The notes beneath the pieces were generated by a model. That model saw only the letters and a list, made by a program, of their open reading frames with translations. It made no database searches and was not told the origin of the DNA. Below, in pieces: positions 6,188 through 16,154 of a stretch of DNA of 64,000 nucleotides. A program made the translations under genes and the position numbers. Numbering within the stretch: the stretch's first letter is position 1; every line of letters starts with the position of its first letter. Location of the stretch: NCBI RefSeq assembly GCF_030269925.1, contig NC_085109.1:6324001-6388000 (forward strand), given 5' to 3'. Source of the stretch: Bombyx mori (lineage: Eukaryota > Arthropoda > Insecta > Lepidoptera > Bombycidae).

Positions 6188-6258
6188 ATCGCCACGAGAA
6201 TGATCAAAATATAAGCAAATCAAATAAAGTGACGTAATATAAATTGTGTTTAAAAAAC
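6188..6258 (+). promoter_or_regulatory. Candidate 3' splice site and 5' leader of the 6345 exon
   Basis: AATTTCCACAG at 6177-6187 is a plausible splice acceptor, so the exon holding the 6345 ORF could begin at 6188 and be joined to an untranslated first exon near 3.3-3.9 kb. The leader also contains the short uORFs. Inference only. Confidence 0.3.
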
Positions 6259-6348
6259 ATGGAGTTTGTTTCACCGCACCGGTCCCTTAAATTGAAGACA
6301 CTAAATATTTATAATGACACACAGTCTGAAGGTTTGAAGTCAAGATGA
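6259..6348 (+). CDS. Upstream ORF (29 codons) whose stop overlaps the main start
   Basis: ATG at 6259 opens a 29-codon frame ending at TGA 6346-6348, which overlaps the main ATG 6345 as ATGA. This is the geometry of translational coupling or leaky scanning. A 4-codon uORF also sits at 6200-6214. Translation is not shown; the inference is that the leader holds down or couples translation of the 6345 ORF. Confidence 0.4.
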   Translation: MEFVSPHRSLKLKTLNIYNDTQSEGLKSR

Positions 6349-7970
6349 AAATCAAACATTATCCAGGAAAAGCGGTCATGGAGGACCCGTGGCTATCCCT
6401 CGGGGATAGAACTATGGACCTTGTCTATGCGGCAAACTGGGTCGGCGCTAAGAATCTTAATAAATGCAATTCTAACGACGATCAATCAAGTTCAAAATGT
6501 AATTCTATATCGAGGAGCAAATCATGTAGAGATGTCGGCCGTTCGGAAGAAAACGAATACAGCCAAAAAAAATACTCACAAGAAGACAGTGGGTGTTACT
6601 TTGATGTTCCTAATGAAAACATATCTCAATTAGCCAAATATCAACAAAATATAGAAGAAAAAGCTAGGACGAGTGATAATTACATTGCTCAAAACAAATT
6701 AAAGCACAGTTATAGTTTTAAAGATATGCCAAATGGCTATAAGCCTTCGACTCTGCGACGCGTGAAACGAAGAAATTTCACAGAATGGGACATCGAAGCA
6801 TTTGGTTCGAATAGTAAACAGCCACCCGTTCCGCCACAACGTAAAGATTCTTTGAAATACGCACATCGACAGAGAAAAGTTGATTCAAAGAAAAATTACT
6901 ATCCGTTACCTGATCCTGGTCCAGTACCTCCTGATCCATCATCAGAATCATATTATGAATATTATTCTAGAGTCAGTCAACAAAACAATGACACCGATAG
7001 CGATAAGCTAAAGCAGATCCAAAAAAGTGGTAAGAATGATAGAAATTCGCCAAATGAATACCCCAAACAAAACGGTAATACCGTGTACAAAATTATACAT
7101 TCAATGGCCACCTTAGATCTGAACCCGATGAAAGTCAGAAACGGTAAACAAACTTTGGAATTGGATAGTGAACCGGAAGATTTGGGTCTATACATGCGGC
7201 CTATTAAACAGTCGTTATCTACATGCGATCAACTTCCGAACCACACTACGCAACCGGCGAACGAACGAAACGGACGCATCGAAGACGCTAAACCTAGCTT
7301 TCGTTCTAAATCATTAAGAGTTAAAAGCGAAGGTAGAGTACCACTTCGAGCGTACCTTGACACGGTCCAGCACAACAATGCGCAGTACAACGGTGTCACT
7401 GTCACGCAACCGAAAAGAAATCTGTCGCCGAGCGAACAGTTGACGCTAATGCAGTACGAAATGTTCAACGGAAGTAAGAACCAACTCGCACCGCCGATCA
7501 GCAACGGGTTCCACGCTGTTGATCCGTCTAAAGAAAGTGATTATCGGACTATAAATAGTGTTACAAAACAAATCAAACCCGATAAATATGGTAAGTTATA
7601 TAACACCGTGAGAGTGAAAAGTGACGATAGATACGAAAGGTACAATGATATTACAAAATTCGCACCTCCGAAAGACCATATCAATGAGGAACGTGCAACT
7701 AATGGAAATGGTGTGTTTACGAGAAGTGCTAAAAGTTCATCTAGTGGTTCGGACTCTGATTTTTCAATACCACGGCCGAAATTAATAGTACCTGTTCATA
7801 CCTATGGAACACGCAAGAGACGAACTGGGAATGTACAGCGTGATAGCACCGCAACGGAAGCTTCATTGGATGCGGGGATCGTGTTAGACGTGACACGATT
7901 GGAAGATTCGAGTCATAAGTTTAAGAAAAATGAAGAATCAGGTAACGCATTCTTGTATTCCACAATGTAA
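6345..7970 (+). CDS. 541-codon disordered ORF; probable alternative first coding exon of foraging
   Basis: A single open frame of 541 codons in AT-rich DNA, so unlikely to be chance. An in-frame TGA at 6327-6329 precedes ATG 6345, so this is the first possible AUG. The product is hydrophilic, rich in Ser, Asn, Lys and Arg, with no signal peptide or membrane segment. It has proline-rich stretches (QPPVPPQR near residue 165; PLPDPGPVPPDP near 190) that could bind SH3 or WW domains, and basophilic kinase-like sites (RKDS, RSKSLRVKS, a KRRTGNVQRDS-like stretch near the end). Base 7941 is followed by GTAACG, a good donor, after 532 codons plus one base; the exon at 15935 needs exactly one incoming base (G|AA, Glu). 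Splicing would give a 1058-residue PKG with a novel N-terminus. Alternatively it reads on to TAA 7968 as an independent protein. I know no homologue. No polyadenylation signal lies just after the stop. Confidence 0.7.
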   Translation: MKIKHYPGKAVMEDPWLSLGDRTMDLVYAANWVGAKNLNKCNSNDDQSSSKCNSISRSKSCRDVGRSEENEYSQKKYSQEDSGCYFDVPNENISQLAKYQQNIEEKARTSDNYIAQNKLKHSYSFKDMPNGYKPSTLRRVKRRNFTEWDIEAFGSNSKQPPVPPQRKDSLKYAHRQRKVDSKKNYYPLPDPGPVPPDPSSESYYEYYSRVSQQNNDTDSDKLKQIQKSGKNDRNSPNEYPKQNGNTVYKIIHSMATLDLNPMKVRNGKQTLELDSEPEDLGLYMRPIKQSLSTCDQLPNHTTQPANERNGRIEDAKPSFRSKSLRVKSEGRVPLRAYLDTVQHNNAQYNGVTVTQPKRNLSPSEQLTLMQYEMFNGSKNQLAPPISNGFHAVDPSKESDYRTINSVTKQIKPDKYGKLYNTVRVKSDDRYERYNDITKFAPPKDHINEERATNGNGVFTRSAKSSSSGSDSDFSIPRPKLIVPVHTYGTRKRRTGNVQRDSTATEASLDAGIVLDVTRLEDSSHKFKKNEESGNAFLYSTM

Positions 7971-8225
7971 CAAGTTTATTTTGTGTAATCTGTAATTTAA
8001 CCTCCAGTATATTTTATCAGATATCGTGCTATTTTGATCTCATGTGTTGATCGATGTTCATATGTATATAGTCGGTGAGACAGTTGTAGGTCGCGAAACG
8101 GATAGCAGTTAGATGATGTCACTAAAACGATACAACTACTTACATGATTCAACCATTGTCAACTTGAATACTAAAGAGGCTACTCGTATTCACTATATTA
8201 AATTTTTTAACAGATATAATGTTGG
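7971..8225. other. Intron start after the alternative exon
   Basis: No repeat or exon recognised. There is no AATAAA close after the TAA at 7968, which weakens the stand-alone gene model. Confidence 0.4.
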
Positions 8226-8417
8226 TTTTTTTTATTTTTTTAGCTTAGATGAGTGGACGAGCTCACAGCCCACATGGTGTTAAGTGGTTACTGGAGCCCA
8301 TAGACATCTACAACGTAAATGCGCCACGCACCTTGAGATATAAGTTCTAAGGTCTCAGTATAGTTACAACGGCTGCCCCACCCTTCAAACAAGAGGTCCT
8401 ACCACCAGTAAAGGTTC
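8226..8417 (-). mobile_element. ~250-bp retroposon copy with internal deletion
   Basis: The head (ATGAGTGGACGAGCTCACAG) and end (AAGAGGTCCTACCACCAGTAA) are present, but about 70 bp in the middle, from ACCGAAACGCATT to the GCGGACTCAC part, are missing. The clean junction after CCCTTCAAAC suggests one deletion. Confidence 0.8.
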
Positions 8418-9224
8418 CTTCAGATTGGCTTTGTTTTTGTACAGATGCGATACACATTTAATATAATGATTTTATTTAGGTTTTGATTTTACTATGCCAA
8501 TGAAACACCAATCTAATTTATTGGTGCACACAAATCCGGTATGTAAAATACGTAAAAAAATGACCTGTACAACGCATACGTTAATTATTCATTCGTAACC
8601 GAACGTGTTTGTCTGTTTTACGGGCTAAATGTAAATTTTCTTAAACAATTAACATAAACCTTTGTTAACTTTGAAACCTATACATTAACCTTTTAGTTTT
8701 CAATTTGAATATTTCATTTTAAATACAAAGTATTTTTCGCTTCAAGTCGTGTATTGGAATTATGAAAGAATTAATTGTTAATCTGTTATAAGATCTTATT
8801 ATCTGCTTTTGAAACATTGAGAGCGAATCAAAAGATCAAGAAACATAATATTTTATTCGTGAAAACAAATTAGCTTTCTGTCAGTCAGTAATGGATTCCA
8901 CTTACGACACACACCGACGATTTAGAACTGTGACCACTAAGGTTCAGCGACGTCGCGGGCCACTCAAAGGTTGCTAAATCCACCGAGGCTGGCATATCAA
9001 TTAAATTTTGCTTCGTTACGTCCCACTTTCCGACCAAATGATGCATGTATATTTGCATAGATTCAAACGTGCTTAAGTTGAGTATTATTATTCAGGTCGG
9101 GCCAATTAAATCGGTTTACCGATTCGAAATATTATGTTTTTAGAGCAATCGAAATCAAATCAAAATCAAGGTGACATAACTATTCATACCATGTTTATAC
9201 AGTTCTTAACTAAAGTTGTTTTAT
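8418..9224. other. Intronic DNA without recognisable features
   Basis: Searched for the missing front half of PKG site A (motifs like IIKEGDVGS and VYVME) without success. No repeat family recognised. Confidence 0.4.
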
Positions 9225-15365: not shown

Positions 15366-15383
15366 ATGAAATAAATATTTGCC

Positions 15384-15575
15384 TATTTCTGCCGTGAAGC
15401 AGTAATGCGTTTCGATTTGAAGGGCACGGCAGCCGTTGTACTGTTAAAAGTGAGACCTTACAACTCATGTCTCAAGGTGGGTGGCGGCAGTTCGTTGTAG
15501 ATGTCTATGGGCTCCGGTAACCACTTAACACCAGGTGGGCCGTGAGCTAGTCCAACCATCTAAGCAATAAAATAT
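15384..15575 (+). mobile_element. ~250-bp retroposon copy, 5'-truncated
   Basis: Begins at CTATTTCTGCCGTGAAGCAG and ends CTAAGCAATAAAATA. It follows the related 3' end at 15247 in the same orientation. Confidence 0.75.
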
Positions 15576-15900
15576 AAAAAATAGTTTAAAAAAACTTTAT
15601 TTCACTTTTTTACAATAAAATTATTTTTTCATACACTATTTTTAATTCAAATTTATTAAAAAAAAATTTTTATTTTATAGTTGTATTTTCTATAAAAGCG
15701 TATTTTGTTAGTTTTTTTAAACTATTTTTTATTTTTTAGTTGAATTTCAATTTTTTCAATTTGAATTGTCATTGGTCCTTAATGAGTATACCAAATTTCG
15801 AGTTAATCCGACGTTTTGAAGGGGGTCCAAATCAAAGATTCCGTTACATACTAACATACATACGTCTGAAGCTAATAAAAGCGTATTAAAAATAACAGAA
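15576..15900 (+). repeat. A/T-rich palindromic stretch plus RTE-like tail
   Basis: AAAAAATAGTTTAAAAAAACT at about 15576 is mirrored by AGTTTTTTTAAACTATTTTT at 15711, so the DNA can form a hairpin. ATACCAAATTTCGAGTTAAT and TACTAACATACATACG at 15785-15870 look like an RTE-type LINE tail. It ends 34 bp before the PKG exon. Confidence 0.5.
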
Positions 15901-15934
15901 TAATACTAAAGTCACTATCACTGTTTCTCTACAG

Positions 15935-16154
15935 AAGGCCGAGTCGAAGTGTCGAGGGAGAACAAATACCTGAGCACGATGGCGCCAGGCAAGGTCTTCG
16001 GGGAACTGGCAATCCTGTACAACTGCAAGCGTACAGCTACCATCAAAGCCGCTACGGACTGCAGACTTTGGGCCATCGAACGACAATGCTTCCAAACGAT
16101 TATGATGAGAACTGGCCTTATCAGACAGGCTGAATACACAGACTTCTTGAAGAG
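15935..16154 (+). CDS. for: for exon: rear half of cyclic-nucleotide site A
   Basis: The acceptor TTTCTCTACAG ends at 15934 and the donor AG|GTAAGT begins at 16155. The exon encodes shared residues 1-73, including the phosphate-binding cassette GELAILYNCKRTATI. The Arg binds the cyclic phosphate, and the Thr after RTA is the residue that favours cGMP over cAMP in PKGs. It enters in phase 1 (needs a G from the previous exon) and leaves in phase 2. The front half of this beta-barrel (the usual VDCMYPV..IIKEGDVGS part) is not encoded anywhere I could find upstream in the window. Confidence 0.95.

What the first reader, a model, noticed from the sequence alone, without database searches (positions are those of the whole stretch)
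6188..16154. Possible short PKG isoform with a novel 532-residue N-terminus
The 6345 ORF has a good donor at 7941 in phase 1. The first PKG exon in the window (15935) needs phase 1. Joining them keeps the frame and gives 1058 residues, lacking leucine zipper and front half of cGMP site A. Such a kinase would be monomeric and have only site B intact. I found no exon between 7942 and 15934 that encodes the missing half.
Basis: partly seen in the sequence, partly recalled or inferred. Interest (0 to 1): 0.75.

Follow-up and report, generated by a model that had tools for sequence, protein, structure and literature searches.

The report
Alternative N-terminus of silkworm foraging kinase

Summary
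A 546-codon frame (ATG 6345) ends in a CAG|GTAACG donor at 7941, phase 1. Joined to 15935 and eight further exons it gives exactly 1058 residues. It is the alternative first coding exon of the foraging/PKG gene of a silkworm. It belongs to the insect "cD5/T2" class (Drosophila FOR P2/P4), which lacks the leucine zipper, the autoinhibitory sequence and the front half of cGMP site A (PMC10299703). A Bombyx mandarina record, "cD5/T2-like isoform X1", is the same protein with 3 differences, so the isoform is already annotated.

Added here: the zipper exon and the front half of site A lie 66 and 16 kb upstream of the window. The T2 exon is nested in the intron that splits site A, and both alternatives reach the same acceptor in phase 1. 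A block IPRP[KR]L[IL]VP[VI]H...RRTG is kept from mayflies to moths (120 of 120 listed homologs carry its first part). The retained half of site A keeps residues that contact cGMP and the kinase in PKG Ibeta, so "only site B intact" is too strong. No RNA of this species was available, and structure prediction could not be run.

The parts
6345..7941 (+). T2-type first coding exon, 532 codons plus 1 base; donor CAG|GTAACG
   Evidence: single copy in the genome (1 match)
6345..6440 (+). conserved N-terminal block MKIKHYPGKAV...YAANW (residues 1-32)
7761..7829 (+). conserved block FSIPRPKLIVPVHTYGTRKRRTG (residues 473-495)
15935..16154 (+). back half of cGMP site A, common exon; acceptor shared by both alternatives
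29194..29335 (+). common exon, first part of cGMP site B
44454..44548 (+). common exon, site B
46135..46281 (+). common exon, end of site B
48290..48609 (+). common exon, kinase N-lobe
49322..49409 (+). common exon, kinase
50609..50793 (+). common exon, kinase (catalytic and activation loops)
52155..52371 (+). common exon, kinase C-lobe
52968..53133 (+). last coding exon with stop

Best explanation
The window holds the T2 first exon and the common 3' exons of a silkworm foraging (PKG I-type) gene. Shown by sequence: exon 6345-7941 lies in the intron that splits cGMP site A and can splice in frame to the acceptor (15935) that the front half of site A also uses. The product has a long N-terminus and no leucine zipper, autoinhibitory sequence or front half of site A; site B and the kinase are complete. 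Inferred: it is made from its own internal promoter, as Drosophila P2/P4 are ascribed to promoter pr4. Inferred: it is not held as a zipper dimer and is less tightly autoinhibited, with basal activity resembling proteolytic PKG-gamma and control by cGMP mainly through site B.
For: Near-identical annotated protein in Bombyx mandarina. Homology to the Drosophila P2/P4 N-terminus. Zipper exon and front-half exon upstream on the same strand, front half ending in phase 1 with G like the T2 exon. In the mayfly Neocloeon a T2 form and a zipper form are identical from E|GRVEV to the end. Two complete T2 proteins (680 and 682 aa) come from contigs of 2667 and 2826 bases, which leave little room for introns. 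PF16808 zipper found in mayfly P0146 and not in P0002. Drosophila P2/P4: pr4 origin, bands in larval carcass and fat body, and authors' expectation of higher basal activity (PMC10299703).
Against: No RNA or protein of this species was examined; the Bombyx mandarina record is probably a gene prediction. In flies P2/P4 were not seen in whole-body blots, and the mass spectrometry bands were P1, P1alpha and P3. P2/P4 have not been assayed biochemically. The second P2 antigen (residues 191-227) finds no significant match in the window (best E 1.4), so much of the N-terminus has diverged.
Confidence: 0.9

Rival explanations
1. The ORF is a separate gene, or a kinase-less product polyadenylated in the intron: it stops 9 codons after the donor and is never joined to the kinase.
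For: The frame does run on to a stop at 7970. AATAAA or ATTAAA words occur after it, from 8197 on. Some database proteins end in intron-derived tails after the conserved block (for example P0030, P0033, P0124, P0125).
Against: 27 moth proteins that I aligned from the listing all continue from this N-terminus into the kinase, and the Bombyx mandarina one does so at exactly this junction. The intron is AT-rich, so such words are expected by chance.
Confidence: 0.04
2. The T2 exon is an internal cassette placed between the two halves of site A, giving a full-length PKG with a 500-residue insert in site A.
For: A Manduca gene model (P0004) reads front half of site A - T2 exon - back half. The window has an acceptor-like tatccag|GA at 6366/6367 in the fitting phase.
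Against: One species' model among the 120 listed proteins; another Manduca model (P0003) starts at MKIKHYPGKAV. The acceptor lies inside the conserved N-terminal block.
Confidence: 0.03
3. T2 is well inhibited: the conserved IPRP...RKRRTG block replaces the lost autoinhibitor or completes the cut site A.
For: The block is basic and substrate-like, constant across insects and N-terminal to the cut site, as the normal autoinhibitor is. The kinase-facing residues of site A are retained (alignment with passages of PMC9417419).
Against: No structure or assay. The linker from the Thr to the junction Glu varies from 8 residues (cockroach) to 62, with two outliers of 177 and 255, in 117 of 120 proteins measured. 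Known autoinhibitors have G or A in place of S/T (PMC9417419).
Confidence: 0.3

Closest known systems
Drosophila melanogaster FOR P2/P4 isoforms (cD5/T2)
   Same: N-terminus from an alternative exon, no zipper, no autoinhibitory sequence, incomplete site A; shared MKIKHYPGKAV, YEANW and IPRP...RRTGN blocks (P0135 is Drosophila sechellia).
   Different: Silkworm N-terminus is longer and most of it is not alignable with the fly's; no sign of the extra 40 residues of P4.
Bombyx mandarina cD5/T2-like isoform X1 (P0002)
   Same: 1058 aa, same join, 3 differences.
   Different: Only the three residues; it is a database protein, RNA support not seen by me.
PKG-gamma, proteolytic fragment of mammalian PKG Ibeta
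   Same: Incomplete site A with complete site B and kinase (PMC10299703). The insect junction maps to about Ibeta 160/161, seven residues before its start (my mapping).
   Different: Made by proteolysis, without an added N-terminus.
Zipper form of the same gene (744 aa, cD4/T1/T3-like)
   Same: All residues from E|GRVEV onward.
   Different: Has the zipper, RAQGISAEP and a complete site A.

Membership tests
Insect foraging T2 (Drosophila P2/P4) isoform class | N-terminus without leucine zipper | tested here: met
   PF16808 absent from P0002, present in the mayfly zipper form; no zipper exon in the window
Insect foraging T2 (Drosophila P2/P4) isoform class | No autoinhibitory (ISAEP-type) sequence | tested here: met
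   ISAEP in 0 of 120 listed proteins including P0002; it is in the upstream zipper exon
Insect foraging T2 (Drosophila P2/P4) isoform class | Incomplete site A, joined at E|GRVEV | tested here: met
Insect foraging T2 (Drosophila P2/P4) isoform class | Homologous N-terminus | tested here: met
   E 5e-11 to a P2 antigen; second P2 antigen no match; blocks aligned
Insect foraging T2 (Drosophila P2/P4) isoform class | Complete site B and kinase | tested here: met
   PF00027 and PF00069 in P0002, whose core equals the window's
Insect foraging T2 (Drosophila P2/P4) isoform class | Own promoter, transcript present | not testable with these tools
   Exon position inside the intron shown; no RNA of this species
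Constitutively active PKG-gamma-like kinase | Activity without cGMP | not testable with these tools
   Needs an enzyme assay; PMC10299703 says P2/P4 biochemistry has not been performed

The most novel reading that the evidence does not exclude
The T2 N-terminus is not just a truncation. Its conserved block FxIPRP[KR]L[IL]VP[VI]HTY..R[KR]RRTG acts as a substitute, autophosphorylatable autoinhibitor, or fills the open edge of the cut site A. Insects would then have a second, zipper-free way to hold PKG off, released by cGMP at site B or by phosphorylation of the constant Thr.
Probability: 0.3. Interest if true: 0.6.

Novelty: already known. Interest (0 to 1): 0.3.

Why it matters
It shows that a hidden exon was called correctly from raw sequence. 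It also shows that the T2 form of the foraging kinase, weakly expressed and not assayed in flies, has been kept from mayflies to moths with one strikingly constant block. A PKG that may answer cGMP differently bears on how one behaviour gene serves many roles, and the conserved block gives a small target for testing that.

Tried and rejected
Considered and set aside: a separate gene, a cassette exon, and an exon for the missing half between 7942 and 15934 (not found; it lies upstream). A search of solved structures with a 37-residue piece around the block gave 0 hits at E 10. Papers: the pea aphid paper (PMC3667181, passages) reports two foraging cDNAs differing in their first two exons, but its authors describe a zipper in both, so I do not count it as a T2 example. 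PMC13300421 and PMC11943175 (passages) mention several isoforms without N-terminal detail. Searches for silkworm or moth foraging isoforms listed no paper that I recognised as describing this isoform; only the held library was searched.

Structure prediction of the T2 class (alignment A1) was tried to see whether the block docks on the kinase. The job failed and new jobs were not accepted. Two motif-region protein searches (58 hits; 92 hits) showed only insects among rows whose organism is visible. One search missed the Hymenoptera seen, so absence outside insects is not shown. An early regular expression found the block in 105 of 120 proteins; one search showed that the misses were variants (LLVPVH, VPIH) or a wrong first match, and the count is 120 of 120.

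Full report
Setting. The window is G000:C3:6324001-6388000 of a 461.7-Mb, 30-contig genome. Repeats that I recall as silkworm SINEs and the near-identical Bombyx mandarina protein point to Bombyx mori; the species is an inference.

Observation. At 546 codons the frame is far beyond the maximum of 223 in 200 simulated 16-kb sequences. I located the exons by tblastn and fixed their borders by GT-AG and phase: 6345-7941, 15935-16154, 29194-29335, 44454-44548, 46135-46281, 48290-48609, 49322-49409, 50609-50793, 52155-52371, 52968-53133. Joined, they encode 1058 residues and a stop.

What it is. The first protein search returned 1119 proteins, of which the best 120 are listed. The top one, from Bombyx mandarina, is named 'cGMP-dependent protein kinase, isozyme 2 forms cD5/T2-like isoform X1'; it has 1058 residues and differs from the joined protein at residues 115, 162 and 230. 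Many listed rows are named cD5/T2 or foraging kinases of insects. All 120 contain IPRP[KR]L[IL]VP[VI]H and none contains ISAEP.

The fly class. In Drosophila, P2 and P4 have an N-terminus encoded by exon 7 and lack the zipper, the autoinhibitory sequence and a complete site A (PMC10299703: section 2.1, legends and tables, and Discussion part 1 read; passages). The P2 antigen printed there (residues 286-362) matches the window at 7725-7850 with E 5e-11; the other P2 antigen (191-227) has no significant match. Direct comparison with a Drosophila sechellia T2 protein aligns the first 37 residues (61% identity) and everything from the IPRP block on; the rest of the N-terminus does not align. In flies, anti-P2/P4 bands were seen in larval carcass and fat body but not in whole-body homogenates, and the mass spectrometry bands were P1, P1alpha and P3. 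The authors state that no biochemistry of P2/P4 has been done.

The missing half. A search of the own genome with the mayfly zipper form P0146 found matches upstream of the window on the same strand. Read in detail they are a zipper exon (6257928-6258415) and a front-half exon of site A (6307601-6307767). With the window's common exons they give a 744-residue zipper isoform containing RAQGISAEP. PMC9417419 (passages) gives RAQGIS as a mammalian PKG I autoinhibitory motif. The front-half exon ends TGGAAG|GTAAGT and the T2 exon ends AATCAG|GTAACG; both leave one G and both make Glu with the AA of 15935. So the T2 exon (6330345-6331941) sits in the intron between the two halves of site A. It gives a single match in the genome.

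Junction in other insects. P0066 and P0053 are complete T2 proteins of 680 and 682 aa whose longest contigs are 2667 and 2826 bases; such contigs leave little room for introns, so they are most likely RNA-derived, from unnamed sources.

Conservation. I aligned 86 of the 120 listed rows; 34 were left out (P0004, the fragments P0030, P0031 and P0033, and 30 further rows, listed). In cockroach numbering Tyr31, Trp35, Pro57, Arg58, Arg71 and Thr75 are the same in 86 of 86 rows; Phe54, Ile56, Pro59, Leu61, Val63, Pro64 and His66 in 85 of 86. The one odd row, P0064, is misaligned at the block, so its agreement at the other columns is chance. Among 27 moth proteins, 181 of 532 N-terminal positions are invariant against 469 of 526 in the core.

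What the kinase keeps. Exon 15935-16154 aligns without gaps to PKG I, so residue 555 corresponds to Ibeta Gly182. The residues that hold the cyclic phosphate in the Ibeta site A crystal (Gly182, Glu183, Leu184, Ala185, Arg192) and Thr193 (PMC3080414, passages) are present as 555-558, 565 and 566. Site A residues that touch the kinase or the autoinhibitor in the inhibited enzyme (L184, Y188, Q213, M217; PMC9417419, passages) are present as L557, Y561, Q586 and M590; this mapping is mine. Lost are the zipper, the autoinhibitor and the first part of site A. The junction corresponds to about Ibeta 160/161, near the start (168) of PKG-gamma, which PMC10299703 describes as constitutively active. My preferred mechanism is a PKG without zipper and with looser autoinhibition, controlled mainly by site B. 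The bolder reading is that the conserved block replaces the autoinhibitor.

Verdict. Observation confirmed; interpretation supported with three corrections: not novel, not short, and site A cut rather than stripped of its contact residues. The isoform is annotated in the sister species and its class is known in Drosophila. The open question is its function, which could not be tested here.

Noticed in passing
window 6259-6348: A 29-codon upstream frame whose TGA overlaps the main ATG as ATGA; if transcribed it could limit or couple translation of the T2 exon. Conservation in relatives was not tested.
   Followed up: partly
window 18748-23139 and 40104-43088, minus strand: Non-LTR retroposon pieces inside the kinase introns: reverse transcriptase and endonuclease domains, and a Baculo_FP_2nd/PHD frame at 22081-23139.
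   Followed up: partly
window 34302-35132, minus strand: Transposase frame (PF01359, PF13358) in the intron 29336-44453.
   Followed up: no
P0004 (Manduca model); window 6366/6367: One gene model uses the T2 exon as a cassette between the halves of site A; the window has a matching acceptor-like site.
   Followed up: partly
G000:C10:9413227-9421114: A row of matches on another chromosome looks like a second PKG gene, perhaps the dg1 ortholog (the name is recalled).
   Followed up: no
   Followed up: no
window 6345-7941: The T2 N-terminus is about 84 residues in cockroach but 532 here; within moths stretches such as KHSYSFKDMPNGY are nearly fixed.
   Followed up: partly
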